Source of the DNA: Henricia sp. BOLD:AAB3569
Lineage: Eukaryota > Echinodermata > Asteroidea > Spinulosida > Echinasteridae
Length of the DNA: 64,000 nt
NCBI GenBank assembly: GCA_037783545.1
Contig: JBBELK010000064.1
Span: forward strand, 2,170,001 to 2,234,000
Direction of reading: 5' to 3'
Shown: positions 1 through 50,500 of the stretch, in pieces
How the letters are laid out: each line of letters begins with the position of its first letter
Position numbering within the stretch: position 1 is the first letter of the stretch
Translations under genes and position numbers: made by a program
Notes under the pieces: model-generated
Databases searched by the model: none
What the model saw: only the letters and a program-made list of their open reading frames with translations
Told to the model about the DNA's origin: nothing

Positions 1-765
1 TTGTTGCCGAAGTATTATTTGCACAGAATTATTAGCTAAATTGACATTTTTATCTCTTGTAAAAAAATAACGCCATCAAACTGTTTTTATAAATAAGAGC
101 ACCCTTTTCAAATGAGGCAAATCTGATATGTGATAAACTGTACATATGCCTTATTATACAAATTAAGTAGAAAACACAAAGGCAATTAAATACCACCCAA
201 AATTGCGAATTTCGGGAAAATGTTGACGGATTTGTTTTTTGTGGGCAGTGTATCTGCAAAACATAGCATATATACAAATAAATTTAACACTTTTACCAAA
301 TATTGCCGTAAGAAGTAAAGAGACTTACTAACTTTATCTAAGAAATATACTACACATAGAAGTAAACAAACAAAAACCATAAACCGAAACAAGTAACCGC
401 CACCACAAAGAAACAAATTGGCAGGATAGAGAAAAATGCAAATATCAAGAAATATGCAGATTGAAAGAGTGATAAAAGCTTCAATGGTAAAAAACAACAA
501 ACACAAAACAAATTATCAATGATTTTGGGAGGAAAAATAAATTGTTACAATTGGAGGAAAGAAGAAATGAATTAGTATCAAAGCTGCAATAGAAAGTAAT
601 TATTTGAAGAACTTGTCTGTAAAAGAGGCTGTAAGAAAAAAGAAAAATATATTGTTAATTCTGTAGCTATGGCAACTCAATATAATAATTTGAGTACCGG
701 ATTAAAATTCTAACACTCCTCAAGCCTTCAAGATTAATGAGTTTTCAGACACATTTAGTAGTGGA
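1..765. other. AT-rich stretch, nothing recognised
   Basis: Presumed intron of the filamin gene downstream of exon A2. No exon with an Ig signature or splice pair was seen on the minus strand, and no clear repeat. Confidence 0.5.
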
Positions 766-1012
766 TTAGGGTGGATTCACACAGATTTTTGCACGAGAAT
801 GCGTTGCGCGTCGCTTTGAGAAAAATTGATGTGGAGGGAATTTGAAGCGAAAAGACGCACTGAAAAATACAATTATTTTGGGCGGAAGGTTCTGTTGTGA
901 TTCTGTGATTTTCAGTATGTCATTTCACTCCAAATTGTCTCCGTGTCGCTTTTTCTTAAAGCAACGCGCGTCAAGATTTACGCGAGAAAATGTTCAGTGT
1001 GAATCCACCCTT
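766..1012. mobile_element. MITE-like foldback, GGTGGATTCACAC family
   Basis: Starts TTAGGGTGGATTCACAC and ends with the inverse GTGTGAATCCACCCTTA; the arms extend inward with CGCGCGTCGCTTT-like sequence. A diverged copy is at 13296-13536. No coding capacity. Confidence 0.75.
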
Positions 1013-1599
1013 AGGGTTAATTAAACCCATTAGTGACCATAGCAGCCCATAGCGACCACTAGCCCAACAATATTTGAATGCTTAAATTCTACACGGTGCA
1101 CTCAACAATTTTTGTAATTTTAATGGCATGAATCTGGGCATACAGAAAGTTGTATGCACAAATACATGGTCTCTAAAGGCCTTTCCCTTCTAGACCAAAT
1201 TGGGGGTTGCAGGGGTGAAAATAAGCCTCTATATTCCCACTTAATAATCTTACTCTCGAGCCACCCCCGAGATTTCTCTTTCCACAAGGCGAGTTCACCC
1301 TGCTTGAGACCAGGGTTGAAAATCCTGAGGCTAGATACTTTCCCTGGGGTGAGATACTTTCTGCGGGGCAAGAACGGTAGTGGGAAAGGGGCAGGGGCGA
1401 GTTCTCACTTGTTCAAGGGAGGGACGAGGTGCCGATCTCCGGTGTGAGTTCGCCCCGGGGGGTGTAGATTGATATGTGTTGATTTCAACACGTTTGAAAT
1501 GACAATGGTGGCGTGAAAAGGCCTCCGAGGGCCACGAGAAATAAATGTTCCTCGACAGAAACCAGCCTGTTTCATATGGGAAGCATTGGGTCTTTCTTC

Positions 1600-2000
1600 T
1601 ATAGCCGTGTCCGCATTGGACTTGTTTTTTGGGGAGGATTTACCGAGATGATGGTACAAAGAAAAATGGCTAAATTTTACTGCTGTCCGCATTTGGACTT
1701 TTTGACACAGTAAAATTTTACCGAGACCGTGGGAGAGCATTCGCAGTGTCCCTTCGCAGTTTGACCTTCACGGCCCGGACGTACACTTCCAAAGCGCTTT
1801 TACCGACTCGCTGTGTCCGCATTGGACTTATCGTCTCGGAAAAAGTTACCTGGGAACTTCTCCTTGGGCAGCAGTTGGCCAGGAAAAGTAACCGCTGGAC
1901 TCTGGGAAAAGTTCCTGAGAGGAAAACGTCCTGGGCTGTCCGCAGTGGACTTAATATGGGAAAAGTACCCATCATCTCAGTAAGTTTTCCCCAGGCCTCT
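1600..2000. repeat. Repeat with four TCCGCATTGGACTT-like units
   Basis: GTCCGCATTGGACTT or close variants begin near 1608, 1686, 1817 and 1938, each near TTACC- or AAAAGTTACC-like words. The stretch 1600-1760 occurs inverted at 17101-17264. Probably a mobile-element remnant with repeated internal units; family unknown. Confidence 0.6.
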
Positions 2001-2290
2001 TGTTGCAAGTGCTCTTCGTTCTACACATCCAAATTTAGAATCTTGCCCAATAGACTGATCCAGGATTATTTGTGCCCCACAGTATGGTGAACTCGACTAC
2101 AACATTTTTTTGATTATCTTGCTTTTCATTAGTAATTCAGTTTTTAGAAGTCCCAAATATTCCAGTTCACTCAAGATGTTAGTACCTTTTGGTTTTAGAA
2201 ATTAGCTTTTTGGATTAAAATAGATAATTGGTGAAGTGTAAAGTGACACTTGTGTGGCCAAAACTGAACTCATTTGGCCCGCTGACTCAC

Positions 2291-2500
2291 CGACCACCTC
2301 GCCATCGCGATCGAAATCTTCCGGCAGCTCGATATCAAAGGATCTATCATTGGGAGTACCAAGTGGGGATACGACTGTCACTCCATTGTTTTCAGAGTCT
2401 GTGGGTTTGTCTTCTGGCTGTTCATCGCCACTTCGCGAGAATGGCTCGGTGAATCGTCGGAAGAGACCCTTCAATGCGGAACCGGGCGAGCTGGGAGCAC
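2291..2500 (-). CDS. Filamin insert exon A2 (KG...TEPF motif), last exon in window
   Basis: 210 bases, 70 codons, phase 1-1: (G)[69 protein letters not shown]. The acceptor is TTCTTCTTTCACAG and the donor GTGAGT, both strong. The first 22 residues repeat the A1 motif. The second half is very acidic with SP and TP sites open to proline-directed kinases. The next exon must lie beyond the left edge; nothing between 1 and 2290 looks like R16. Confidence 0.82.
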
Positions 2501-5500
2501 CTGTGAAAGAAGAAAAGTTGGTGCGTGAACTTTGACATGCCAAGAGTGCCAGACTAAGCAAGACTTGATGAAACCAACTGTTAGCGCCATATCGGACAGT
2601 TTTTCTACATAAGATAACATATTGAGAGAGTACACTGTATTTGCCAAGGTCTGTGCTGAGACCAGCAGCTTTTTTACAAAACATTTTTAAAAGGAATTGT
2701 GTTAACCTTGACCAAACACTTAGGGCTGCGTTTGGGCGTGCAGTTCTCGCTACTCGGGTCATATTACACTCGGGTCACATTACACGAACGGCAAGTTCGC
2801 AGTCCGCATGCGCGAATGGCCACGAGTCAAAATGGCCGTCTCTTGCCACGACTACACAAAAAACGCCGTTTGATTGCTCACAAGAAATTGAAGAAAATAC
2901 AGACCGTAAGTCGTGAGAACCTTTGATGCCGTGTAAAACAAACCTTAGTGAGTTGTTGATTCAGTTATCCAGTTGACACGTTGAGCAAATTCAGCAAAAT
3001 TTTGAATTAAATACCATCCCTTACCCCCAGCCAGCTTTGAAATGTACAATTTCAAATATGACCATTACACATTTTACTCCCTTATAATAAATATTCAATT
3101 ACCTGATTCAACATCCTGTACTTTATCCTTGGTTATCTTTTCATCAATGGGTTCTCCATCAGGTGCGTCCATAAAGGCACTCAAATCGATTCCTAGTGTA
3201 TAGGAGGGACAGGAGAATACAAGGTGCGTTAGGGTCATATACATGTACGGAGTTATCTTATTAACTAAAATCCTTAAAGATATTAACTAAAATGTACTAG
3301 CACTGTTCTAAACAGAAATTGTACCTCCACATTATGTTTTCTTGTTTGTATACGAGCAAGTAACATTTTCGCCCAAAATATACCTTTCAGTAAAAAGCAG
3401 GCATCATTAAAAATGCTATTTATAAAATTGTGCCTGTCCGGATAACTCATTTTAACTTATTCCTGATGTAGGAGTTTCCCAATTTAAAAAAAAAAAATCC
3501 AACGGTAAACAGAAGATAGAAGCTTCTTCTTACCCGATTCAACTAGTTGCACTTCCTGCTTGCCCACAATTTCTTCAACCACCTGGTCTCCATTCTGCAT
3601 CGGGGCACCATTCTCTGACGGTTTCCCTTTGGCTATGATTAAATTCATCAATTGTCAATACAGGCAAATATGTACAGAAACATTTCAACCAATGGAAAAT
3701 GCCATCGATTTCAATACTACTTTTGCAGTGGATGTTGAATGCTCTAAACCTTGATAAAACAAGTGGTTGTTGTAAAGAGACACTTAACTGCATGAGAAAA
3801 AAATGAAAATTGTGATGTTATCTGTGCAAAGACCTTCACACGAATACATATTGCCATTTTTACTATACCACATAATGCCCCATCACTTTGCCTTTACTGT
3901 GTTGCAAGACATGTGATCGTCCACCACATTTATTTTGTAAATTTGCCAATTTTTTGGGGTGAATTCTTTTTGGTGAATTTATTTTGTGAAATTTGGTAAC
4001 TGTAGCTCATAGACTACTAAAGTGAAAACGTCATCCTTTGTGTGTTGCCAAGATTATTGGGTCTACACTGAAACCACTGTGGACAATTTCCATGCGCTTT
4101 AGCAATGGATGTTTCAGATTACCAGCGAATGTTTAGACGCAGTTACAATGGCAACTGACGTCACACTTAATTAGAGATTTTTTTCTTGCCCGAGACATGG
4201 ACAGATTCAGTCAACCGTAACTTCACTTGTAAACATTGTATGAAATTGAAATGAGCATCAATTTGAGGCTTAGATGTTCTTTCTGAAACTGTTAAAACCC
4301 GAATTGAGTTGGAGACGACTTTACAGTCCGGTGGTGGATGGTCACATATTCATGTAGAAAATTTGCACACTATTTGGCACAAGTCACTCAAAAGAACTTG
4401 ATTTTTCTGTTTTTTAAATCAATGTCTGAACTACTGAAATGTTCATCATAGTGATGAAGGTTTCCACAGATGGCATTACATTTCTCAGGTTTTAGAGATT
4501 AAAGTAATCACTACACACTTGCTGCTTAGGGTTTGTTTCGGACGAATCTGGATCCAGATCTGCGCATATCCAAGGTGAATTCGTTCACTTCACGAACTGA
4601 TTGAGATCTGTGATCTCTGAAATCCTTTGAGAGATGGTTCAGCGCACGATCCAAAATGGCGATGTAAACATCGCGAACATTTGTGCGAGTTTCATTTTTC
4701 ATTTGGAACAGAAATTTGACAAATTTGGTAAATAAATTGCAATTTACGTGACTTGAGATCCTAGTTGAGAGCAGTTTCGTTTGTTTATGTACAGTAAAAC
4801 AACTCGGGATCTGGATTAGGATCGGTCATAAAACAAACACGCCCTTAGAAAGTGTAACACAATGATGTTCCTGTTGAAGGTGATGTTAATACTATTCCTG
4901 GTTAGTTAAAAACTAAAGTGAATGAATCATGTTTTGTGGAGTTAGTTGCTCCCGCTGAAGGTGATGGTTAATGCTCTACCTGAAATGTTAAAAACTAAAG
5001 TTAATTAATGTTTTGTAGAGTTAGAGTAATGGTATTGCAACATTTCCGGAACGATTGTTAAAAATCCAAAGATTGTATAAAAAAGTCATGTTTGGGAGAC
5101 TTTGTTGCTCCCTAATAATAATCGTCTTGAGCCATTACTTGGCCCGTAGGCGCTTACTTCTACGAATAAACAATGGTGAACACTTTTGAATTTGGATTCT
5201 TTGGTGTCCAGCTGCCTTAAGTTCATCAATTGAGAGACCACTCCACTTGGTCAGGTTGTCCACCCATCTGGCATTAGGTCGTCCACGGCCTCTTCGTGCA
5301 TGAGCCGGAAACCCTGTAATCACTGCAGCCGTCAGGCCACCACATTGTACTGCATGACCACACCAGTTTGCCTTACGTGCAAATACCGTGTCAGACGAAA
5401 ATGTCCAGCGACCTCCAATGCGTCTTTCCAGTTCCTCATTAGTCACCATATCCTGCCATGAAAGACCAAGAAGGTGCCTCCAAATTTCACGACCGAAAGC

Positions 5501-8500
5501 GTCCAGGCGTTTGGCTTCTGCTGACTTTACTGTCCATGTGCTGCAGCCATACGTGAGGCGTGAGGCCACCAGAGCCTTGACAAGATGGAGCTTTGTTGTT
5601 GCGCTGATGCGAATGGATTTGAGGTATGTGCAACGGTTGAGCGTGTTTTTGGCTAGTGCAATACGGGAACGAATTTCCCTGGCGTCATCCAAGTTGTGTG
5701 TGATGGTAGTGCCAAGGTACTTAAAGTGGGAGACGCGGTTAAGTTGTTTACCCTGAAAGGTGATCGTAGCATCATCCATAGTGGATTGAATGACCACATA
5801 CTCTGTTTTATTAGGGTGTATGTATAGTCCGTAGCGTTCAGCGACATCACCGAGGGTGGTCAGCATTGCTTGTGCGTCCTCTGCCGTGAGTGCCAACAGG
5901 ACCAGATCGTCAGCGTATCTTTGCTCTGCACAAGGTATACCCTCAACATCCGGAGGAGTTAGGTGTGCTGTTTCAACTGTCCATTCACGCATGAGATGTT
6001 CGGTGTAAAGATTAAATAGTGCCGGCGAAAGTGGACATCCTTGCCTTACTCCAACAGGGGTGTTGAATGGGGGCATCTTCATTCCTTTCCAAAGAATGGT
6101 ACCATGGGACTTGCTGTAAAGATCTTCAATCAGTCTTACTATGTCTTCTGGGATGTTCATTTCCTGCAGAATACTGATAAGCTTGCCATGTAGTACACTG
6201 TCGAAATTGGTCTCAATTCGTGTTTGAGTCACATTATTTTGAAACTTGAGAATTCGCATTTGGACTTGATTGGAAACAATTGGCAACAAAATCCACAAAA
6301 TTTCCAGACATGTTGCAGAAACATTATGAACATTTGCTGTGGCCGGAGAACCACTGCACAAAAAAAAGTTACTTTTTGCGTCCTGTAAAAAAAATATAGA
6401 AATGTGCGTGAATTACAATAGATAATGCTATGAACAATGCCATGTTAGTTATCCAATCACCTTTAAGATAAGAGCTGTCTCATTCACTTTATAATGTAAA
6501 AATTTGAGCACTGAAGATCGTTCCAAGTAAAAAATGCTTTATGAAATTCAGAAACGTGGAAGCTTTTAACGTGCAATACGGTATATGTGAATTGTAGACT
6601 TTCTTTACAAGAAATAAAATACTCCTCCAAAAACTAGGGGATATAGTACATGCAGCTGAAACAAGTCGTCCAGTTTTAGCTAGCCCATGCATGTTAAGTA
6701 TACTTCAGGTTCGTATAATGGTTTGGTCCAAACCACTTTGAGATGATCCGCTTTGTAAAAACATGTACGGATACTCTCAACCAAACTTGGGATGAGAGAA
6801 AAATCATAAGGGCCTTATCGGGATTCGAACCCGAGACCTCTGACTCACTAGGCAGATGCTTTACCAGCTGAGCTATAAGGCACAGTTGGTATACTCGCTC
6901 AGGTTTTTCCTATGGACCCAATTTCTCTCTCGGTGTTGCATGGTAGAGACAAAATACATGTGTACAATCAATATTACCACCCACAGTCCAGTTTCAACTT
7001 TTAGCCTTTGTGATCCCTTCTTTAAAAAGCAAACAACAATCCAAGAAAGTTGTACACTTAAAGATAGGTTAACAGCAGTACAACATCTGAACTGATGCCC
7101 CTTATCTTTTTTTTTGAGAGAGATATGTTCCGGCCCATACTTTGTAAATGTCATGTTTTGCTTTAGTTCAACTATGAACATTTTGCAGAAGCATGTGATG
7201 ATCTTTCACACGACAGTGAAACAGAAATAAAAATAATTACTCAAAATGGTGAGTTAGCCGCCCTGTTAAATCTGAACCACCAACTAATGAACCACGGTTA
7301 AGCTTCCTTCCACCAGTTACACAGAAAACCCTGGGACACTCCTCTGGTAATTGTGCAAAACTGGTGACTGTTATGAAATGTTAACGTTATTAAGGGGCCA
7401 TTCAAAATAATCAATGTTAAAAAATTTTGATTTCGTTTTTTCGAAATTATTTCTATTGTCCCCCCCCATGTGTCTCAAACATCCAAGGGATTTCAAAGGA
7501 ATTCCTTTCAGTCCCTTTGTCCCATATCGTGCTGGGCACGGTATTCAGACGAGGTTCACCGAGGTCAAAGGAAGCAAAGCACGAACTTCGATTTTCAGTT
7601 ATTTCTTTTGACCCACACACCAACAATTTTGAAAAAAATTGCAAATGTTTAACATTGACTATTTTGAATGGCCCCTAACTTGTTAGCCTTTGTTTTAATT
7701 ATTCGCTGGCAGAGTGTGACGTCAATTTCCACGCGGACGTGCTCACTTTTTTGACAACTGTTCACGCTACTTGCATGGCAACGCATTTCTCCATTCATTT
7801 TGCACAGGAGCTACAAGGGGAACATTTTCTGTTGAGTTTTTTTATTACAAACATCACAAAATAAGGCGGTAGAATAGCATATCGCTATGAGAGTAGGTAT
7901 GAGCAAACCATTGCAAGTCATTATGGTCATTTTATTACACTTTCTTCTGAAAGAATACTAGTAAAATACACTGTGCGCAAACACAATGGATGTAAAACGT
8001 GAGCATGAACCAGTAACCATAGTTACGGTCCAGCGCCCATAATGTAACATCACGACTCTGCCAGTGAATACAATGTAAACTACATGTGGTATGTGTGTGG
8101 TTTTAGTAAACTGGTAGTGGATGGAAATTTTTTTAATTTACTATTGATATGCATTTAAATTTTGGTCCCTGGCTTTCCACTCCAACCCTTCTTTCTGCCC
8201 AACTACTTCTCTTCGTGTTCCTCTTAACATCCTGTTTTTATGTGCCAATTTTGCATGTCCTAGTTATATTGCCTTTGAAGACTTCTCTGGGGTTGAAATG
8301 TGAGATCACTAATTTGACACTGGTGTTTGTTTAATGAACAACTACACATAAACTTAAAAAAAACCAACCTTACTTAACATTCAATTTCCCCGATGCAAGT
8401 CTAAATCAAATTCTACACATAAACTCCTCAAAAAAAGTTCGGAAAGTCAGGTTTCCCTTGAATTTGGTATCATTGGAAAGCCCCGTTATTCCTCTTTACA

Positions 8501-11500
8501 GTGATGTGTCATTTGTTATGATTAATCAATTGGGGGATGTGCAGTATAGCAGAATACAGGGGTGGGTGGAAAGTGAAATTTCAAACAATTCACTGCTATC
8601 GTCATGCAATGCGTTCCCCTTTTGCTTGGAGGATGGGAATGTGTCAATGCACTTTTTGACAATAGCAATGCATTTTGTGACATTTCACAGCTGTGCTGCA
8701 CATCCCCCAATTGCTTAATCATAACAAATGACACATCATCGTAAAGAGGAATAACAGGGCTTTCCAATGATATAAAATTCAAGGAAAATTATTTTGCAAC
8801 AAGAGAGAAATCGTCAGTCAAACTGGACTTTCCGAACTTTTTTTGAGGAGTTTAGATGTACACTGGGAGAACAAATTTCACAGTATTTTTATTGTGAAAA
8901 ATAGATATGCCTTTGCCCCCAACCTGTGTGGCCTATGTTTGAATCCAATCTAAGCTACATGTACATGTACTTGTGAGTTTGCCAACTTGACTTGCTGCCC
9001 TAGACACTTCAAGACATCCTTGTGCACAGTACATTATTAACCCCTGCTCCTATTTTAAGGCCTGTTGGCAATGCTTCCATTTTGGCCTGGTTATGCCTGC
9101 CACAGAGAATTCTTGCCTACTCCTGATGATTTGGCAATTTCTGAATTTTCTTCAACATTTAAAATGTTTGTTTTTTTAGAACTTATCCCTAAATCTCTCT
9201 AGTATGCATAGCACGGAGCAAAAGATGTTGTCAAGTTAGCACAAAAACAGTCCGGTTAGCACATTGGCTTGCTAAAGTGCTTACTGCTTCAGCAGAAAAT
9301 GGCAATGCTCTTTTAGCGCACCACTAAAGCAGAAAGTGTGCTTACCGTAATTACAGATTTTATGAAATTGAGCCTAGGGTTTAGTTTGCAACCTAAATTT
9401 GTGTGGAGTTCTCTCAACTTTAGTATTTCTTCCTTTATAAACTCTTAATGTCGCTAAGTGTCATAATCGATGAGGACGTTTTGGTAAACATTTAAGTTCA
9501 CTAAAGTCTAAAACTGGTCTTAAGTGTTAAGATAGAAAGTTATTTTCCCAGAGAAACGTGCAAGTTCCAAAATACAGATTAGTTGAACAGTACTCCGTAA
9601 TGTTGTCCTTTTGCAGGCGATGGAAATTAAGTGGTTATTAAGAAATCATGCAGTGTCATGGCCAAAGTGCCCGATGCGGTGAATTTGCCCGGAAGTGAAC
9701 GGAGCTTGGCGGCACTCACCGTTATACTGACGTGCTTCGGGAGACATGCGACCCACGTGGTCCCAATCATCGCTGGCCTCTTTGGCCTTGTCACCTTTGT
9801 CCCCAAACACGTCCCCAAGACGCCGGAATGGTTCGGTAACTTTTTGCAGGAAGCCCTTGGCAAAACTTGGCGATTGCGGTTCTGTTTTGTCGGAGTGGAT
9901 TTCGAGTGTAAAATTTCAATGCAAGTTCTAAGGAGGATCAAGCCTCCTTGCTTGTTACAGTACAATTATTTTACATAAACCTCGACTTCTTTACAATGGT
10001 CAAATTGTATTCTAGGGTTTATAAATTACATGTTTTGTTCCTTATCTTTCTTTCTGGTGAATTGTTGGTTGATCTCATTCAGAAGCTAGTAACTTTGGCA
10101 AACCAAAAAAATTATTCAAATTTATTTGTTAAGGTGAGACTGCCCGATTAAGACTGTACACATTACTATTAACTCAAAATATTAAATTTAAAATTAAATT
10201 TTTTTCACCCCTATATGTGTTAAAATTCAGCCATGATTTGCCAATAAGGGTGGATGCATTGGCCTTTCATATCTAATCAATGGAAGAATCATAATTGTGT
10301 TTTGACATTTATCTCCCTAAAAATCTTGTTCACACTAACTATTCAACCTTTCAAAATTCTGGAAAATGCCTCGGTATCCCCATAAATATTGGATCACTGA
10401 AAAAAAACTTTGGCAGTTAATTTCCCCTTTAGTATTGATTTTCTTGCCTTGTTGTTGAGACAAAATGTTGTTGATTGCAAAGAAAAAATGCACCATTTTG
10501 TTCCATGTTGCAAATGTCATTAAACTACATGTGTACTGAACGTCTGTGTCAAAAGGTTGGCCGGTACTTCTGTGTCAATTAGTACCTGGTTGTTTACATT
10601 GGTGGTGATTACGTGTACATTTTTAGTGAAAGTATTACACCAGAACCTCACCCGATTCCTGGGACCCGATATGATCTCTGCTAATGACCTCTTCTATTGG
10701 TTTTCCATTCTCATCTAGAAAATATTCAGGGGAAAAATTGTCAGCCTAGCAAAAGTTACAATGGAAAACAAATTCCAGTTCTCTGGCATTGTCACTTTCT
10801 ACATTGTATTTTCAGTGTTTTTGCACAATTTCTGATTGAATGTCAGAAGTGCCTAAGGGGGAAACATTGTTGCTGTGTTAGTTTTGGGGGGAAATGGACT
10901 GCAACATGACAAAGACTTTCTGAAAAAGCAAATTTCATGTTGGTAAAAGAAAACACGACATAAAAGTAGTTTGATGAATGATGGAGCACCGTTGATCCAA
11001 AAATGCTGTGTTTTTGCACAATTTCTGATTTAATGTCAGAAGTGCCTTAGGGGAAACATTGTTGCTGTGTTAGTTTTGGGGGGAAAATGGACTGCAACAT
11101 GACAAAGACTTTCTGAAAAAGCAAATTTCATGTTGGTAAAAGAAAACCAACATAAAAGTAATTTGATGAATGATGGAGCACCGTTGATCCCAAAATCCTG
11201 TGAAAGACGAAAAACAAAAATGAACTGTTAAAGCTGTACCGGTCTCAATAATAATGCCCTGGTTCTCAAGAAATCATGTCATTTCTACAAACACAATACA
11301 ACAGACTAAATTTGGCATAAAGTGGATGGCCAGATTCTTTCCTTCTGCACAGGTCAAGAAAAGCTGCAATAGAGAAAAAGTGGCAAGATATGACACTAAA
11401 TTCACAAAACAAAACCACCACAAAACATCACATGGACAGATACATGTACATGTAATCACTTATTACAATTGAAACACATGCAAATCTAAAAAAATAATAA

Positions 11501-14500
11501 TAATAAAAAACAATTATTTGTGTGTTGAAATCACACGCAGTTCTGAGGTACATTGTACACTCTAATGGGAGCAGCATTTTCTAGGTAAATATATTTTGGG
11601 AAAATATAAAGCAAACAAGAGTTGTAAAATAACCGTGTTATAATAATGCTTTGGCTGCAGCCTAAACGTGTAAAGCCATTTGCGAGGTGCCTGTTAATGC
11701 AAGGTTTGGGATTGTGCGACAATTGTTTCAAAATGAGAATAAAAAAATAAAATAAAAAATAAAAAAGGAATGTGCTTCCAAAGAATGGCCAGGAGGGAAA
11801 AGGGTACCAAGATCAGGGGGAATCTTGACACTTTAAGATTTGTACAAGTTGTGACACTGCTCCTTTAGTGTTGATAGTGACAAAGAAGAAAAAATTCGGC
11901 CCAATTTACCTGTTCAGCATAAAAAAAATCTTTGTAGGTAATAGCTATTTCAAACAAAAAAGTCTTATAGAAATCTATAGAAGGGTCTAGAAGTTTGCAT
12001 AGAGCTATAGAGAAACATAGATCGAACTTCTTTTAAAAATGGATTTTACTCTCTGATGACATGTGTAGATAGAGTGCACTTTTCTATGAATTACATTCTA
12101 TTAAGGTTCTATAGAGTTTTATAGAATATATTGCATACACTACAGAACCGTATAGAACTGCCAGAACACATCCATAGAAAAGTGCACTCTATGAAGGTCA
12201 TCATCAGAAAATAGAACCCCATTTTTTTAGAAGAACTTCTAAAGATAATTTATTCTATAAGATTCTTTAGAAATCTATAGAAAGCGAAAGACCTCTTTAA
12301 TAGAGTTTTTCTAAAGAATTTATAAAGATGTATTTTTATAGAAATCTATAGAACATTTTTGTGCGCGAAACATTTTGGAGAACAAGCTAAACCAACTATA
12401 AAAAAAACTGCACAAAAGCAAACTTTTTCAAGCAGGATTGATTAACTCTGACATGTACAGCAGACATACAAGAAAGAGTCGAGTAGGACTTTTCCCAAGC
12501 TTCAGTGCCTTACCAGTAATGCTGTTTGAGCCAGCACCCAACACGGGGAATTGCAGCTCTACGGGTCTACACTCCTGTGGCATGATGGTCTCTGCGTCTA
12601 TCAGGTCTTCTGGTGGTCCTTCGGCAGCCTGTGCATAGAAAAAAACAAAAAGGAAAAAAAATTGCATAACATGAAATAATATAGAATATACGCCTAATGG
12701 CATACAAGGGGCCATCCAAAGTTGTAAACATTTCACGGAATCACAAAGTATAGGAGGGGGCAGGGGGGTGGGGGCTTCGAGGGGGAGGGAGGGTGCTACT
12801 ACGCTCTGTATAACCGTGAAATTTGACATCTTTGGACGGCCCCTAACAATGAATTCAGTTTTTTTTCCTCTGTACAGATGGCCTTAATGGTTAAACAATG
12901 TGTGCAAATGGATAAAAGCATGCAGCTTTTCTGTCCAATGTTTTGAGACACAAAAGAGCCTTGTTCATGATTCAGAGGATGTGGGTTTGAGTCCCACCAG
13001 TGTCTCACATATATGTCCATAGGCAAGACACTTAATCTCAATTGCCTCGTCAACCCTAGCAATATTTGGGGGAATGCCACAATCCAAGTGCCGATACTTT
13101 GCTGCACCTAGTTAGGGCCAAATGGTTCTGGCAATTCCCTATGGGGAGTAATGATGGCAACAGCACCAAGAGTACCCTGCAGGGAAGGCATGTGTGCTAT
13201 ACAAGAATCCACCATTATTAAATGTAAAATCAACCTTAAAAATAAACAATGCTCTTCAGCCAAGCTGATGGTTTTTGTGTAACATACTGAAGCTTAAGAT
13301 GAATTCACACAACCTTTTCACGCAAAAATGCACATCGCTTTCAGAAAAGCTGTTAATAGGGAAATTGAGTGAAATGAGGCACTGAAAATCACAAAATCAA
13401 CTTTGGCGGAAAGTGTTTTTGTAAATTCCGTGTTTTTCAGTGTGTCATTTCACTCCATATTCCTTGCATGCTACTTTTTCTAAAAAGCGATTCGCATCTG
13501 ATTTACGTGCAAAAAAGTTGTGTGAATTCACTCGTGTCATAAAGTGTTCTCACAAATCCAGCAAGCTACATTTAGGCCCACATGTATGTTCTTCTGTAAA
13601 CTACATTGCAGCAACACCATTCACAGTGCTCCTGCTATTTGATAACCCAAGAACTATGTATCCTTAAATTGGTGACCCAATTGAAATGCAATCCTGAAGA
13701 TCCGACATTCCTTTCCTATAAATCACACGAGTCTAGTTTATAAACATGAATGACTAGTTCTTGTACCGTTTGAACTGTCAGCATGTTTAGCTATCTGGTT
13801 TCGTTAGGGGAAATACCAAGCCTAATTGGTTGACTGGGATGCTCCTGGCTATCTCTGATGTTGCGCCGCTTGCGCGTTAGGGCTATCTGATGTGTACGTT
13901 AGGGCTACACCGCCAAAACGTATTCATACTCTGGCTTACTGGCCATACTTTGAGAAATCCAATAGTTACACATCAGGGTTATAGTCAAGTTCATCACAAG
14001 CCAACACAAGCTTTCACAAATCCGTCACAAAATATTGAATTGAACTACAACAAAGACAGTTTGTGCGCGTTTATCCTCTTTTCTTTTAACTGTACTTTAG
14101 CCTAAAAACACTTTATGCATTCCTATTTAAAATTAAAACCACGTGGGTGGTTTTAAATAAACTAAAGGCTCGCTTGGTTTTAAACACTTTCTAGTCTGGC
14201 CTAGTCAGTTTAAGCATGCATGAAAAACAAGCACATACAAAAATCACACAACTGAAGGGAAATCCGACAGTGACACAAAGAGTGCACGCGTAAACTACAT
14301 GTATGCGTGTGCATTGTACGCGTCAAACAATTGTGAAAAACAACTGCAGGAAAGTTCACAAAATTGAGAAACGGCAAGGTTTTCAGTCAAAGAATTTTTG
14401 GGAGTTTTACTGATTTACACAAATCGACGTGGCATCGCCTGAAAGGTTTTTATGATTAGGAATAAAGACATGATTGGCCAGACTTGCCGACAACCTTGAT

Positions 14501-26500: not shown

Positions 26501-29500
26501 TTTAAAACTTGGAAAAGCAGATGTTGGATTCGGCTGGAAATGTAATTATTTATTCTGCTATTTGCTATGATGCAAAAAGGGTTCCCTTGAGACTGGAACT
26601 ATAGGGCCTTCATTCTTAAGAATTCATTCGTGCTCCAGGGTTTTGTTCTGACATATATGGCATATCTGTTCTAAGCTAGATCCTGGAAATGCTGAATTTG
26701 TTGAGCGATTAATTTCATTTTGTAAACGAAGCATTTAAGACCCACCCTGAAATCTCTACCAACCAATCATTTTGATGGACAATGGCGATCCACATGGTCT
26801 TTTGGTGATCCAAACAATCTAATAATTCTGCGCACTTTGAAGTTTCTAGACAAGTTGCTTACTGGATCGGTCCATTAAAACTGAAGTCACACAAAAACCT
26901 AACCCACCCCTAAAATATCTAGCCGGTTTTAAACGTATTGTTCAAGACTGGCCAAACCCACTTTTATTCCCATTCATAAATACCTTTTTGTGTAAATCAG
27001 TAAAAAAAATAATAAATGTGCTTGCCTTTTTGCCATTTTTGCATTGTATTTTTTTATGCATATCGCGTTCGTTCAAACTGCTAGCTGTGCGTCAAGTTGT
27101 TTTTGTTCAATCGCGCCCGTTACACAGACATGTTGTACACGCACACACCCACGACTGGGTACTTTGCACATTTTGCTTTCGGGCGCGTGCAGTTTCTGTG
27201 TGTGTGTGTGCGCATGTTCCATACGCTCTGACTAGGGGGGCAGGCACAAACGTGGGCCAGCCGGCCGGTCTTTATTACTGGTCTTTATCATCTGTTTAAG
27301 ACTGGCCATGTGACGTGCTCTCAGCCAATAGGGATGCATAAACTGTCTAAGATATTTATGAATACCAGATAATGCTTTTCATGACTTAGGGTATTTTTAG
27401 GGTAGAAAGCCCCCGGGTATTAACAGCATCGCCATATTTCAAAAATAAAGGATTCACTGCACAAACACATAATGCCGGTATTTGGCATGCTATGCACAGC
27501 AGTTGAAATGTCCCCACTAAAAAAAGCAGTTTCTACTGCTAAAATACATCTACCATTGCATGCATTGGCAAAAACATTTGCTCAAAATTTGCTCATCCCT
27601 GATGACATGTTTTAATTTGCCGTTGCTCGCATCAATAACTAACAATTTAAGGCCGTTTCTACTGGCTTGATAACAGTACTCAGCTTTTCTGAAATGGTAA
27701 TCATGCTTAGCAAAAACATGCTCATATAGTAATATTTGACATTGTGGCTAATCACTGCAAGGTCATCTGGCCACCAAAAATGTTTTTTATATGGGCTTCT
27801 GAAGGGGCAGTTTGTCACCCAGAACCCTTTGTCCTAAACATTTATTTACAAAGAGGAATTTTTCCGACGGAAAAATTGGGTTCAAAGGGAAAACCTTAGG
27901 GAGCATACCACTGGGCCTTATGGCCCAGCCGGTAGAGTGTCTGCCTATTGAGTCAGAGGTCTCGGGTTCGAATCCCGATCAGGCCCTTACTATTTTTCTC
28001 TCATCCCAAAGAGGCAGTACCAGAGGCCATTGAGACGAGTGGTTAATTTAATTGTGAAAACAAAAATTCAGAAGCTTGTGAAATGAAACTCGATGACGTC
28101 ATCATGATGTAACTTTCCAGAACACTACTTTACTATGGGGATAAAAGCCATAAAACAAAACAATGCCTGTTCTGCAATAAGAAAACACAATGGCAATACT
28201 TACGCTGACTGTGATGGGTCCTCCCGTCAGTGACACACCACCAAACTTGATGTCCACATTGTACGTGCCAGGGGCGGGGCATGTCCAGATGATGTCAAAG
28301 GTACCGTCACCGTTATCCACGACGTGGCAATCGGGAACTTCTTCACCGTCGGGGCCGACAATCGTACAGGTCACGTGACCCTTGCCGGCGTCGCGCGAGT
28401 TGACCTTGATGACGGTTTCTTCCTCGACCACGACAGTCTTTGTGATGGTTTCTCCTGTTGCATAAATTGGGGACGAACATTTAAAAAACAAAAGATTAAA
28501 AAAAGTGCAAAAGAAAATTCCTGACATAAATTGACTAAAATGAGAAATTTCTTGCTAGCAAATTGTTTTGAGCCGTTATTGAGATGTGCAGCAGTAAGAA
28601 TCATAGAGTTCAAACATTGTGTGGATAATTTTGGGCCACAGAAAAACCTATTTTGTTTTGATCTCAGTTTTCAAGCATTATTAAGTCATCTTCAGCACTT
28701 GTAGCAGTAAGCAACATTATGCTGCAGCATTGGGGGTAAAAAATTAACTGGGGCCAATTTCATAGCGCTGCTTAACGGCCGATTTTCTGTTAACCGAGCC
28801 TCTGCAATTTCATAGGCATCATTAACGGTAAGCAACTCAAAATGTGCCTTAACTGCAGGGCCAAACTTTGCTTAATATAGTGACGCAATAATAGCAGTCT
28901 CTAAGCGTGCGCATGCTTAAGCATGCCGTGGCCATGAAATAGCGCTTAACTCGTCTGCTACAGTAAGCATGCTGTTACTGCTTGCGCTTAAGCGGCTCTA
29001 TGAAATTGGCCCCTGGTTTACAGTATTACAAACTTTTAAATCCGTTTGTTGAAAACCGCATTTAGCAATAAATTTGACTTCCACATTGATATTGAACTAC
29101 ATGTATTAAACATGTACATGATAACTGTGTTCAAACTGCAAATCAGTTTTAAGAAACAACAGATAAATGATCAATACTGTGCACGTTTTCATGCAGTCAA
29201 AAAAAAACTAAACAAGTCAAATACATTGACAATTATTCACAATTAATAAAAGAAAAATGAAACAAAATGATCAGGGGACTATATGAATCATGACTTGCAT
29301 GTATGATGAAAAATTACTGCATTTACGTTTTGTTCGGAATAAATCCTTGCTGTAAATTTTAGTGACTGTAGTTTTTGAATGCATTTATTTTAGCTTCTAC
29401 AGGGCAATTTATTTTTATTAAACCTGCACTATATTTTTAAGAAAAACCCATCACGGCTTTAAGAAAACAAGTGTGTTTCTCGCCCCCACCCAAACTTCAC

Positions 29501-32500
29501 ATCGTGGTGAAGGGACCATGTTTGATCCAACCACCTTCAAGTACATGTAAAGCTAGTAATGAGCAACTTGGTTTATGCAGACATGCTTTAGTGATTTGTA
29601 TGGGAAATGGCTTTTTCAGGATGTTGATTTTGAGCACAAGCCGTAAGCATTTTTGCAAAATTCAGTGGGAAGCCAAGGCCTGTCCAGGATTTTTGGAGAG
29701 GCAGAGACTCATGAAAATGTAGGCCCTTTCCTAACATTCACATGAAAACAGGAGTGATTGAACACATTGACCTCGATCACACTGCTAGGTAAAACGTTTT
29801 ATTCTATGCCTATGAGCCAGTAGTCCAAGGAAGGAAACTAGTTTCAAACTGGCCGAGTAAAGATTGAGTTGAATTTCAAGTTTTGGCTATAGACCGTATC
29901 GAACAGCTGTCATCTTGTAGGGCAGTATTTTTGTTCCTTGAGGACATGCATGATTGCACATTTTGTGCTTGCATTGTTTACCAATATCCAAAGCTGTCCC
30001 AGAAGATGACAGCTATTCAAAACAATCTATTCTAATAGGATGTATGAAAGATTCTTTAATGCCATATTCATAAATCCAGACAGAATAGACCAGTTATGAG
30101 ATAGATTTGCATAAGTCCTGCCTATATTTACATAAATGCTAGAGTACTGCCTTCGTGCTATATGGCACTTGCATACGAGTGACTCAAGCACCATATTATG
30201 TCTGGCAAATCGGCCCCGTTTCCGTGCGGTACCTGGAATACCTCGCACATTACTCTATGTATTTCCAAGCTGGACCATGTTGATTGAACATGTTGATCAG
30301 CAACTTCAAACCAGTCACATAACCCAAAATCGTTTCTCTACTTTCTTGAATGCATCATTGCAGTTTGGAAATGTTCCAGCTTTCAAAGTTGACGTCGATT
30401 TCAAGTAAACAACGTGTTTTATTTCGTTATTTTGACAAATTCACGATGACTACATGTTTCAACATGTTCATTTCAACATTTAATTTTGGATGGTCCAGCT
30501 TAAAAATGCATAGAGTAATGTGCGAGGTATTCCAGGTACCGCACAGACTTTCGCGCCGGATACTATGGACCAGCTTGCACCCTCTGGAAACAGCCTGATT
30601 TGCCAGGTAGTCTGGTGCTTGACTCACTCGCAGGTGAGCATCATAGCATGAAGGCAGGAGTCTAGGATTTATGCAAATCTATCACGCAACTGGTCTATTC
30701 AATTTTCTAATTGTGTCCTTCTAAAGACTTGTTTATACTCCTAAAGTTTTTTTGGAGAAGCATGAGTTAATTTGTATTTGTTTCTTTAAAAAGGACACAA
30801 ATGACTAAGCCACAATGGAAAAAATTGTTAGAACTGATTAGTAAACTGTTGTTGCATGCTGTGCACTGTAGATTGGTCTGACCTGCTGAAAACGGTAATT
30901 TTTTGGTAACAGGGGTGGAACCTGTTCCGCCTTTCCGCGGAAAAGTCTTTATCACAAACCAGCGAGACAAAGACTTTTCCGCGGAAATGCAGAACAAGTT
31001 TCATCCCTGTGGTAAATAAATCGTACCATACAATCTTAATATGCAAGATGATGCGGAAGCCATGCGGGGAGGACGGCTGGGGAAGGGGAAGGAAGTCTGA
31101 TTGGATGTGGGGGAAGGGGGTAAAAATGTGGTTATTAGTTATTGCGATGGATATGTTGGGGTTTTATGTCCCATCAAATGTGTGTAAAAACTTTGAAGGC
31201 GATCCAGTGAGCATAAATTTGAAGCTGAATGCTTGAACTTAGCAAGAATGAGATGAAAGTTTAGAGCAATGTTTTTCAACATAGGGACATTTTTATGTCT
31301 CAGATATGGGATCCGCTTTTGAATGAATCTCATGATTTTAGTTGGTGGACAAAGTCAAACAATCATTTTTTTTTTACAAATGTTTTGTTTTCAAGTGCTG
31401 CATTTGTTTTTGTGACAATCTTTTCTATTAAAAGCAAAATGCAACTTCCAAAGCTCTACATGTAATGTTTCAGATTGGCAGTTTTGTTTTTAATTTTTGT
31501 CTTTCTTTTTTAATGTCTTTTTGTTGTCACAAACTGTCCTAAAAGTGCACACCAACAATTCCATCAAAATGCACAATCTAAAGCATAACGCCAACAATTG
31601 CAATTTGTTTTTTTGGTCATCTTTTCATTTTTGGTGTTAATTGAATCGTGGGGATGCCATGCCGATTCTCGTAGATTATCCCTTACTTGTGGTGGTGGTA
31701 CGGGTTGTCGTGGTGCGCGTGGTGGTCGTGCTCTCTGAGCTAAGACTACGCCGACGGACAGGGATCTCATAATCGCCACTTTTGACGCCTGCAAGCCAAA
31801 CGGTGGGTCAACCTCACATGGTTAATGGCAGGATGGAGCAACGCTGTTTTTTTGGTAATTTTAATAGGCACCTCTAGGTTAGGACTACTGTTTATTATTA
31901 GGCCAGTATATATGGGGTATTAATGCATCTAAACGTGAATGCTCTGTGTCCTTCACCATTTGATAAGGGGTTGGTTTCTTGGGGGTTTACGAGGGTACAA
32001 CAGTAGTAAATATATCCCACATGCTCGTTCCCAAGAGTACAATAGTACTTATCTTCAAGCAAACTTGAATCCGTGTTTCTGATTGGTGGATCCATGGCAA
32101 CAACAATAGCAGCCATCCATAAAGTACGTACGCACAGAGGGGGGAGGGGGGGATGGGGGGTGGAGCCAATGCGTACACCCAATGTTAAAGCATATGGGTG
32201 ACGTCACGAAATATGGGGGGGGGGGGGGGGAGGGGGGTAAAAAGTTCGCATTTCGTGTGTACGTACTTTATGGACGGCCCCATATGACATTGTCGTACGT
32301 ACCCCATCTGTTTTTTTTTGTCACACTGCGTAATGCATCCAAGTATTCCAAGTGCAATCAGTATGAGTGATTCTTTGCGCATACTTCCCAGCTTGTGTGT
32401 GCGTCGAGTTTGCTTGAAGATAATTTTTTTATCTCACGAGCGCTCATTGACTCAACATAATGTTGTGCATCTGCGTCTCATATACCACTTTACCTCGGCA

Positions 32501-47500: not shown

Positions 47501-50500
47501 TTGTAACCGTTTTTGGATCTAAGTTGTCACTTAAACCAGACAAAGGTATTTCCTCGAAAATATGGTCTGTGTTGCCAAAATGCCCCATTTACTATTGAAA
47601 GACCCACATTTCATCCATAGATATCTGTAGCTTGTCGTTCGTGCTAAGTGATATGCAAATGACCCCCAACCTTTGCCTGCCTCCTGGCAGTCCACAGTGA
47701 ACTGGGTTGGCTGGCTGGACTTGACCTTGTTGGGTTCAACTCCGGGACCATACACCTTCACCTTGTTGGCTCCTCCACCAATGTTGATCTGTGGAAATAA
47801 CAAAAACGTTGATTTGTCTGGTTTGAATATTTCAAATTTATTTACTATGTGTATACTGGCCTCATGATTAATAAATTCAGTTGCACTGTATAGTAAGCAC
47901 ACTTGTAGCTAGGCTAGTTCTTATTTGGGCGAATCCTAATATGGGTTCGAGTGTACTATAAGGCAAAAAAACACCCTACGTTTAGCGTACCGGGGCAAGT
48001 GTTTCTCCAGGTAAACATTTTACCGAATATCTCATTAGACCCTTAATTTCACAAAACTACCGGTACCTCCTCGCCGAAGGCGGCCCTTTTGCGAGTGGAG
48101 ATAATGCAATTTGTAACAGTTTTCCCAATCCTATAATCTATCTTTAACCCATTAGTCCCCAAAGCGCCCAAAACCGCCCTGCAGCTTTCTCCTCAAAGCG
48201 CCCAAAATCACCCTGTATTTCTTCCATGTTTAACTTAGTGAAATTCAAGTTTCTGCAAACACACCCTCATGTATGTACTCATAGCTTGACTCCTCTTTCA
48301 AATCTTGTGTTCAGTAAGGGTGCTACTATTAGATAACTCTGGTTATTGACCTTGACACGGAACATTACCCAAAAGCTCCGAGGAGTAATAAGACACTACT
48401 TGTTACCACCGAGTACTATTGGGTTAATACCATCACATGCTTCAATTTTTGGAATGAAAAATACATTTACTACTACCCACCTTGAAAGGACTCTCCGGTA
48501 TGGCGACTTCTCCCCATGTCACAGCAACACTGTGTTTCAATGGGCGCGTCGGTGTGTACGACACGGTGTAGGTACCGTTCTTGTTATCTTTGATGTCTGG
48601 CTTGACCGGGACACCTTGTTGGTCGTGGATCAGTACACATATAGGGGCTTGGCCGCACCCTGGTGCCTTGGCATCCACGGTGAATTCGGTGCGCTTGTTT
48701 AGTTCCAGGCCGTCCTTGGCTAGGCCGGGACCAAAAGCTTTCACCTGTCGAGTGATTCGTAAAATTTTTCTTGAATGGTTGTCAAATTGGTAGAATGGCC
48801 ACAAGATCAAAGATACATGTAGGTCAGTTGACATTTGCACAAGTGAACCCGTCGCGAAGTTACAACTATCAAATATTGAAAGTAGATATATGATAGGATT
48901 AACAATTGGAGATGAATTTAGAAACACAAGAAAATTGCAGTGCCCACTGGGATTCGAACCTATGTCTTTGGCATACATGGCCAACTGAGCTATCTGGCAA
49001 GCACAAGATTGTTGTGATGCTCCGATGGGATGCCCAGATAGCTCAGTTGGTAGAGCAGTTGGCCATGTATGCCAAGGACTTGGGTTCGAATCCCAGTCGG
49101 GGTACTGCAATTTTCTCGTGTTTCTAAATTCATCTCCAACTATCAAATAGTTAATTTGCAACTTTGTGAAGAGTTCTGGATCACAACTTGTGATGTTAAT
49201 CACAAGTATTTTGTGAAACGCAACTTTAAAACATGTTGCAAGCTTATGAAAGGCTCGACAAGTTGTAAAGGTTTTAACCCTGCGGTGCACGTGGGCGATC
49301 CAGGTACCTCGTTACAGGAGTGTACCAGTCGACAGCCGGGAGTGTGTAACTCAATCAACGGGGCATATACCCCTGCATAAATGGACTAGCATTTCCAAAT
49401 TCTTTTCGGACGGTCTAGAGATTGTATATAACCAGGTGCGGATCCAGAAATTTTTGCAGGGGGGGAGGGGTGGGGGGTTGGCTAAATGGGCAGTCAAAAC
49501 CTCCCTTTAAGCCATTTATAGCTAGATACGCTAAACAAAAAAGCTTGACTGAAAAGAACGTGCCCAACAGATGACAAACATCACTCCAGTTCCCAATTGC
49601 TCAATTTCATTATCAACTGCATGTGTGTCAAGTTTGCTTGAAAATAAATTAGTTATCCCACTCGCGCTCACGGAATAACTAATATTGTACACGCAAGTAT
49701 TTTAAGTAGTCAGAAGATACTTAACATCTAACAGTAATTCTGCACTCTGTTATGCAAGGTTGGAGCAAAAGAATGTTTGCAAATCTCAGACTAAAGACCG
49801 TAAATCTGACATCAAACATTTCGCGACAAATATTTTTGCGAAAAGTTCAAACTAAGCCGTTTGCAAATTTGCAGTGCAAAAAACTCTTGTGTGACATCAA
49901 TTTCGCAGTCACGTTCACTTTTGCACGAAATACAAGCTGGGCTTAATTTTTCCAAAATTTGCTCTTTCTTGGAGCCTTTTGGTGGGGGTGGGGGGGGGGG
50001 AAGCCACTGGCCCTATGACTGCCATACCTTGGAAGCATCAAATCCACCCTTGTCTGGTACAATCTTGGCAATGTACGGACTGTGCACAATGTCCTCTTCA
50101 TCGCACGTGATGTGGATGGCATACTCGCCCAGTACGGTGGGGTAGTACGTAACCTCACACGAGCCATCTCCATTGTCTTTGCAGTTAATCTTGGCCTCTG
50201 ATGGCCCCTCAATAGAGAAACCTACAGTTGCATAAATTTATAAACAAAATGTCACTAAATAATGTAAAACAAAATACACCCTTTCCATTTTGAGAACCAA
50301 ATTTTTCCCTTTCTGTTTGAAATGCAGTGATGTCCAATAAAATTCCTAGGTAAAATTACAGTAAAACAAATACATGAGGTTTTTTTTAAGAAAGTAGTGA
50401 AAACTTTAGGAGTCGATCAAAATTGATTACAAGTTGGTAATCGTAATCGCAATTCCATCTGTTGTAGAAATCAATTCCAATAATTTTGGTACAAAAATTA

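What the first reader, a model, noticed from the sequence alone, without database searches (positions are those of the whole stretch)
2291..12628. Array of five frame-neutral exons inserted inside filamin repeat 16
After the exon carrying hinge 1 and the first strands of R16 (12514-12628, ending in phase 1), five exons of 63, 162, 99, 90 and 210 bases follow. All are phase 1-1 and multiples of three, and none has an Ig signature. Their acceptors and donors are standard and all five join in frame with no stop. They would place up to 208 acidic residues between strands of R16, where vertebrate filamins run straight on from GELTG to EVRMPSG. Any subset can be skipped in frame, so this looks like an adjustable, probably alternatively spliced insert next to hinge 1, the region that sets filamin flexibility and the start of the mechanosensing repeats. 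I know of no description of such an array.
Basis: partly seen in the sequence, partly recalled or inferred. Interest (0 to 1): 0.86.

Follow-up and report, generated by a model that had tools for sequence, protein, structure and literature searches.

The report
Cassette exon array inside filamin repeat
An animal's filamin gene, which makes a force-sensing protein that links actin filaments, carries five extra optional-looking coding segments of two duplicated types that would push up to 208 residues into one folded unit next to its main hinge; no RNA has yet been seen to show they are used.

Summary
On the minus strand, a 12.8-kb intron splits filamin repeat 16 (R16) of an apparently intact filamin gene. 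It holds five open, phase 1-1 exons (63, 162, 99, 90, 210 bases; 208 residues). R16 resumes just outside the window, in phase 1, as GEVKRPSGKK. All 32 exon subsets are open and in frame. The skip-all form aligns to human FLNA repeats 16-17 with no gap at the junction.

Chance is a poor explanation: at the same (post hoc) cut-offs the antisense strand and 60 shuffles give 0. New here: the exons are paralogous. E1/E4, with E3 less clearly, form an acidic type. E2/E5 share KG-x5-TEPF-x-R-x-GD, a strongly amphipathic stretch after a Ser-Pro site. So the insert is not uniformly acidic, and it enters inside strand C.

Most likely this is a duplicated cassette array giving R16 a variable regulatory insert. 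It resembles the 82-residue insert in R20 of vertebrate FLNC and hinge-1 splicing in FLNB/FLNC. Alternative splicing is inferred, not shown: no RNA, second species or own-genome copy could be checked, because those tools were off or busy. Verdict: real, a new variant of a known kind.

The parts
28204..28454 (-). Exon of repeat 15, ending ...GGPITVS in phase 0, joined to exon A
   Evidence: Filamin-like translation; its donor (GTAAGT from 28203) read by eye, where the chain had ended it at 28239
12514..12628 (-). Exon A: hinge 1 and first half of R16 ([38 protein letters not shown]), ends in phase 1
   Evidence: aligned to human FLNA 16-17 (2k7p)
10652..10714 (-). E1, 63 b, phase 1-1, A-type exon: [21 protein letters not shown]
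   Evidence: paralogous to E4, 0 of 2000 shuffles reach the score
9720..9881 (-). E2, 162 b, phase 1-1, B-type exon: [24 protein letters not shown]...
   Evidence: paralogous to E5, 0 of 2000 shuffles; amphipathic, 0 of 3000 shuffles; single-sequence AlphaFold2 gives one helix 4-45 of 53 residues, mean pLDDT 80.2, pTM 0.45
3534..3632 (-). E3, 99 b, phase 1-1, A-type exon: [33 protein letters not shown]; an alternative acceptor giving 3626 is possible
   Evidence: weaker A-type similarity: to E1 10 of 2000 and to E4 13 of 2000 shuffles
3103..3192 (-). E4, 90 b, phase 1-1, A-type exon: [30 protein letters not shown]
   Evidence: weak resemblance to the strand C-D part of this gene's own repeats, 4 of 2000 shuffles
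2291..2500 (-). E5, 210 b, phase 1-1, B-type exon: [28 protein letters not shown]...GEVV; the highest-scoring exon of the five
   Evidence: (total score 28.1); amphipathic, 4 of 3000 shuffles; AlphaFold2 low confidence, helix 7-17 only, mean pLDDT 59.1
1..12513 (-). Host intron inside R16, 12,807 b in all; its last 294 b and the second half of R16 (L009, window -294 to -434, GEVKRPSGKK...) lie left of the window

Best explanation
The gene is an apparently intact filamin. The phase-1 intron that splits R16 has become host to five cassette exons built by duplication of two exon types (order A-B-A-A-B). Skipping all five gives a canonical R16. Including any subset puts a variable segment into R16 inside strand C: an acidic, flexible A-type piece and/or a B-type piece with a Ser-Pro site followed by a basic amphipathic stretch, probably a helix. 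The most likely effect is to loosen R16 (the insert becomes a long B-C loop, or R16 fails to fold and the R16-R17 pair opens) and at the same time to display a regulated docking site beside hinge 1, much as FLNC's R20 insert recruits partners under kinase control. Shown: coding-like exons, phases, paralogy, amphipathic stretch, entry point in sequence. Inferred: alternative inclusion, loosening of R16, docking, phosphorylation.
For: The 8 candidates passing in the host intron are all forms of these five exons; antisense 0, 60 shuffles 0.0, next-door 15.6-kb intron 0. 32 of 32 subsets open. The skip-all product aligns to human FLNA 16-17 (2k7p, E 6.2e-65) with no gap at the junction and one single-residue gap about 8 residues before it. 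Paralogy E1-E4 and E2-E5, each 0 of 2000 shuffles, with 5 of 8 and 5 of 9 identical residues written in different codons, and no DNA alignment beyond 26 columns between the two members of these pairs with 300 b of flank: the peptide, not the DNA, was kept. Amphipathic stretch, 0 of 3000 and 4 of 3000 shuffles. A CH-domain-like stretch lies upstream and an R24-like end at a stop downstream. Precedents: FLNC R20 insert and hinge-1 splicing (passages).
Against: No transcript, no second species and no allelic copy was examined. Splice sites do not differ significantly from those of 25 other exons of the gene (acceptors p 0.14, donors p 0.34), and 24 of those 25 were picked by a finder that demands good sites. 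The RBFOX motif TGCATG is not enriched (5 in the 12.8-kb host intron, 14 in the 15.6-kb neighbour). Every exon also has a stop-free antisense frame. No Pfam, NCBIfam or PDB match names a function. E5's structure prediction is of low confidence.
Confidence: 0.66

Rival explanations
1. The five exons are constitutive: every filamin of this animal carries the 208-residue insert and R16 tolerates it as a very long B-C loop.
For: Donor and acceptor scores do not differ significantly from those of the other exons; all frames fit.
Against: The skip-all junction restores a canonical R16. The entry point is inside strand C, where permanent interruption should harm a repeat that otherwise aligns well with human R16 (inference). 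Equal phases and duplicated types are typical of skippable cassettes (recalled).
Confidence: 0.14
2. An alternative promoter in the intron starts a short, rod-2-only filamin using some of these exons as its 5' end, as alternative starts do for C. elegans filamins.
For: E5's frame stays open upstream to an ATG at 2762 (ORF 2202-2762; same frame by arithmetic). C. elegans fln-1c and fln-2c/d arise from alternative starts (PMC3143143, passages).
Against: All five have acceptors. E5 has the best acceptor of the five (6.6), and the coding score falls from 18.2 to 4.7 when E5 is extended upstream to 2650. The ATGs at the start of E1 are out of frame (sequence).
Confidence: 0.08
3. Relic exons: once used, now always skipped.
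For: E1 to E4 have middling acceptors (0.7, -0.5, -1.8, 2.1); the intron holds mobile-element-like sequence.
Against: 208 codons without a stop in the one frame needed, in all five exons; paralogous peptides alike in spite of synonymous change.
Confidence: 0.08
4. Mutually exclusive exon clusters: one A-type and/or one B-type chosen at a time, so that the array is a selector, not a length adjuster.
For: Duplicated exon types of like sequence are the usual raw material of mutually exclusive exons (recalled).
Against: A and B types are interleaved (A-B-A-A-B), not grouped, and all 32 subsets are in frame, so the frame imposes no exclusion.
Confidence: 0.12

Closest known systems
82-residue insert in R20 of vertebrate filamin C
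   Same: A long insert within one rod-2 repeat of filamin; binds partners such as myotilin, targets FLNC to the Z-disc and is phosphorylated by Akt and PKC alpha (PMC7216277, PMC7244511, passages). From recall its place is also between strands B and C. This gene's own R20 has a phase-1 intron in that region.
   Different: R20, not R16; one insert, not an array of two duplicated exon types. Sequence likeness was not tested: no FLNC insert appeared in the alignments shown.
Alternative splicing of hinge 1 (FLNB exon 30; FLNC hinge-1 exon)
   Same: In-frame optional sequence at the R15-R16 junction; hinge 1 governs flexibility and calpain sensitivity (PMC6103745, PMC7216277, passages).
   Different: There one exon carrying the hinge is removed; here hinge 1 sits in exon A and up to five exons are added after it, inside R16.
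Small in-frame alternative exons and alternative starts of C. elegans filamins
   Same: Invertebrate filamin with in-frame alternative exons (PMC3143143, passages).
   Different: Those authors predict little effect on structure; the passages seen mention no duplicated array and no R16 insertion.
Tandemly duplicated alternative exons (Dscam type)
   Same: Exon duplication inside one gene as a source of isoforms (PMC4835542, search listing only).
   Different: Five interleaved exons of two types, symmetric in phase, with no sign of mutual exclusion in the frames; not an adhesion receptor.

Membership tests
Filamin gene | Filamin Ig repeats (PF00630) in order on one strand | tested here: met
   24 of the 39 own-genome matches lie on C64 between 2152322 and 2231436, all on the minus strand; two of the 24 include a TAA
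Filamin gene | N-terminal actin-binding CH domains and a C-terminal R24 | tested here: met
   CH-like [41 protein letters not shown] at about 65.0-65.1 kb and an R24-like frame ending at a stop at about -17.6 kb, found by pattern and read by eye, not scored by an HMM; the ABD was not assembled
Filamin R16-R17 pair | R16-R17 sequence like FLNA 16-17 when the five exons are skipped | tested here: met
   2k7p, E 6.2e-65, residues 5-185 of 186, no gap at SITGEV; second in the table after 2j3s (1.4e-65, two stretches of other FLNA repeats)
Cassette exon array | AG/GT borders and equal entry and exit phase in every exon | tested here: met
   5 of 5
Cassette exon array | Transcripts with and without each exon | not testable with these tools
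   No RNA data at hand; protein database switched off
Cassette exon array | Splice sites weaker than those of constitutive exons | tested here: inconclusive
   Acceptors p 0.14, donors p 0.34, 5 against 25 exons
FLNC R20-type insert | Insert lies in R20 | tested here: not met
   It lies in R16; not filed as a member, only compared for how it may work
FLNC R20-type insert | Extended basophilic motif RxRxx[S/T]xx[S/T] (motif) | tested here: not met
   A looser pattern gave only RMS in E2 and RRFT in E5; SP/TP sites: 2 in E2, 3 in E5; the full motif is absent by eye
Hinge-1 alternative exon | The optional exon itself carries hinge 1 | tested here: not met
   Hinge 1 is in exon A, outside the five exons

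The most novel reading that the evidence does not exclude
A combinatorial splice code in a mechanosensor: exons of two duplicated types, with up to 32 possible combinations, are fed into strand C of R16. Each cell type can then set whether R16 folds, how far hinge 1 extends, and how many copies of a Ser-Pro-gated amphipathic docking helix the filamin carries, so the force response of the actin network would be tuned exon by exon.
Probability: 0.25. Interest if true: 0.82.

Novelty: new variant of a known kind. Interest (0 to 1): 0.6.

Why it matters
Filamins are textbook force sensors. In vertebrates, splicing of hinge 1 and an insert in R20 of FLNC alter them, but the effect of that insert on the R20-R21 pair is stated as unknown (PMC7216277, passages). 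An array that can place 0 to 208 residues into strand C of R16 would be a natural titration experiment: the same protein with graded inserts at one site next to the hinge. It would also suggest that an intron inside a filamin repeat can be a landing place for regulatory modules, arrived at apart from vertebrate FLNC.

Tried and rejected
Tried without result: relatives in other species (search for homologous proteins answered that the database is switched off; these queries could not be made). A search of the own genome for other copies of the exons or a second haplotype (genome search answered busy 20 times). Domain identity of the insert: Pfam 0 families, NCBIfam 0 families, PDB 0 chains at E up to 10 for the 208 residues; of four exons scanned alone in Pfam (E1, E2, E4, E5; E4 also with flanks), one sub-threshold match, E2 to LPD22 at E 0.14, dismissed as chance. 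Further copies of the exons in the 84 kb held in the script: tblastn found the known pairs and, outside the five, nothing better than E 0.079 (E1 against part of R18) and E 0.40 (E2). RBFOX motif enrichment: none. Weaker splice sites: not significant.

Considered and rejected: E5 as part of a first exon from the ATG at 2762; the E1 ATGs as starts (out of frame); the reverse-transcriptase ORF 5135-6361 as part of the array (my gene-finding script picked a piece of it as a false exon; dropped). E4 as a clear filamin-repeat derivative: only suggestive (profile 4 of 2000 shuffles, while E1, E2, E3 and E5 gave 418 or more; the best two of 12 single repeats gave 4 and 11 of 1000). That no such array is in print rests only on seven answered searches of an open-licence library, of which I saw the best 3 to 20 listings each. 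Light 2012 on filamin repeat evolution, van der Flier 2002 on splicing and Heikkinen 2009 on the R16-17 structure are not held, and for Kesner 2010 the look-up only timed out; none was seen, and except for Light (cited) their subjects are recalled.
Full report
WHAT WAS CHECKED. The window is C64:2170001-2234000 of an unnamed 740.7-Mb genome, and the filamin gene runs on its minus strand: 24 of the 39 own-genome Filamin matches lie there, all in that orientation. Re-reading the splice borders gives exon A 12628-12514 and five exons E1 10714-10652, E2 9881-9720, E3 3632-3534, E4 3192-3103 and E5 2500-2291, of 63, 162, 99, 90 and 210 bases, all phase 1-1. The R15 exon before exon A ends in phase 0 at 28204 (read by eye), so its frame fits exon A with no exon needed between them; pattern searches of that intron showed no repeat-like piece. 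The gene has a CH-domain-like stretch upstream and an R24-like end at a stop downstream, both read by eye.

IS IT MORE THAN CHANCE. The host intron is 12,807 bases. With the weakest acceptor, donor and codon scores of the five exons as cut-offs, the sense strand gives 8 candidates, all forms of the five exons; the antisense strand gives 0 and 60 dinucleotide shuffles average 0.0. Without the codon cut-off the counts are 10, 3 and 0.57. The cut-offs come from the exons themselves, so this is a comparison, not an unbiased test. A scan of all symmetric phases over 84 kb kept 17 sense stretches (4 of the five exons, E1 not kept and E3 in a shorter form, and 13 filamin exons or parts of them) and 0 antisense; the neighbouring 15.6-kb intron gave none. 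A stricter gene-finding chain took only E1, E4 and E5 and also two false exons in this intron. All 32 subsets of the five exons join open and in frame; on the other hand each exon also has a stop-free antisense frame, so openness of single short exons means little by itself.

WHERE IT ENTERS. With all five skipped, exon A plus the next exons give an R16-R17 that aligns to human FLNA 16-17 (2k7p, E 6.2e-65) with no gap at the junction...NSIT|GEVKRPSGK, and one single-residue gap about 8 residues before it. In an alignment of this gene's own repeats GEVKRPSG lies under LAVEGPSK of R17, so the split falls inside what is strand C by recalled strand limits, not between strands. Including any exon moves SIT away from GEV; the ends ...VES|GEV (E3, E4)...QES|GEV (E1)...QYN|GEV (E2) and ...EVV|GEV (E5) would have to replace it. 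Whether R16 still folds is open. Strand A of R16 is reported not to be folded in FLNA and FLNB structures (PMC7216277, passages), so this repeat is already unusual.

WHAT THE EXONS ARE. They are duplicates of one another. E1 and E4 ([19 protein letters not shown] / [19 protein letters not shown]) and E2 and E5 ([23 protein letters not shown] / [24 protein letters not shown]) each beat all of 2000 shuffles; E3 is nearer the first type (10 of 2000 to E1, 13 of 2000 to E4); E1-E2 also scored 48 of 2000, and the remaining pairs 450 or more. Of residues identical in the matched blocks, 5 of 9 (E2-E5) and 5 of 8 (E1-E4) use different codons, and with 300 bases of flank these two pairs show no DNA alignment beyond 26 columns; the same comparison for E3-E4 is void because their flanks overlap. 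The peptide was kept while the DNA drifted, which is the best evidence within one genome that the exons are translated; the blocks are short (16 and 19 codons). The whole insert has 46 D/E and 24 K/R, net -22, but E2 is only -1. The B-type core is strongly amphipathic (moment 0.69 and 0.62; 0 and 4 of 3000 shuffles). AlphaFold2 on the single sequence gives E2 one long helix (4-45, mean pLDDT 80.2, pTM 0.45) and E5 only a low-confidence helix 7-17 (mean pLDDT 59.1). E2 has 2 and E5 has 3 SP/TP sites. No family matches the insert. E4 weakly resembles the C-D part of this gene's own repeats (4 of 2000 shuffles, the other four exons 418 or more; best two of 12 single repeats 4 and 11 of 1000), which hints that the A-type may have begun as a piece of a filamin repeat.

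HOW IT MOST LIKELY WORKS. Shown: five coding-like exons, equal phases, two duplicated types, amphipathic B-type, entry in R16 beside hinge 1. Inferred: the exons are included or skipped by tissue; inclusion lengthens the B-C part of R16 or prevents its folding, opens the R16-R17 pair, and presents docking sites that proline-directed kinases may switch. Results against regulated splicing: splice sites not significantly weaker than in 25 other exons (p 0.14 and 0.34) and no RBFOX enrichment. The missing evidence is RNA and relatives; the tools for relatives and for own-genome copies did not answer (see Tried and rejected).

WHAT IS KNOWN. FLNC has an insert of 82 residues in R20 that localises it to the Z-disc, and hinge 1 of FLNC and FLNB is removed by splicing during myogenesis (PMC7216277, passages). 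FLNB exon 30 encodes hinge 1 and its skipping promotes the mesenchymal state (PMC6103745, passages). The FLNC insert is doubly phosphorylated, which protects FLNC from FILIP1-mediated degradation (PMC7244511, passages). C. elegans filamins have small in-frame alternative exons (PMC3143143, passages). That the FLNC insert also lies between strands B and C is from recall; I did not see it in a call. This gene's own R20 has a phase-1 intron in that region. An insert within a filamin repeat and splicing near hinge 1 are thus known kinds; an array of duplicated cassettes in R16 did not show in the listings of searches, which cover an open-licence library only.

VERDICT. Observation confirmed; interpretation partly supported; new variant of a known kind; interest 0.6, held down by the lack of RNA and of a second species.

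Noticed in passing
window 31687-31788 (-): A Thr-rich exon candidate of 102 bases ([33 protein letters not shown]), phase 1-1, near the start of R15: possibly a second skippable exon on the other side of hinge 1.
   Followed up: partly
window 5135-6361 (-): A 408-aa open frame that looks like a reverse transcriptase (YADD box) of a mobile element, in the host intron between E2 and E3.
   Followed up: no
window 6810-6882 (-), 27914-27986 (+), 49032-49104 (+): Three tRNA-like matches in introns; ARAGORN reads an anticodon it can name (Thr) in only one. They may be tRNA-derived short interspersed elements.
   Followed up: no
window 8452-8788: An inverted repeat with 99-base arms, 91% complementary, in the E2-E3 intron, like a small transposable element.
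   Followed up: no
window 10815-11202: A direct repeat spaced about 193 bases in the intron upstream of E1.
   Followed up: no
L009 1998-2956 (-): A short phase-1 intron between the strand B and strand C parts of R20 (KIP|GTDPLDMTAQ), near where vertebrate FLNC has its insert by recall; the symmetric-exon scan kept no candidate in it.
   Followed up: partly
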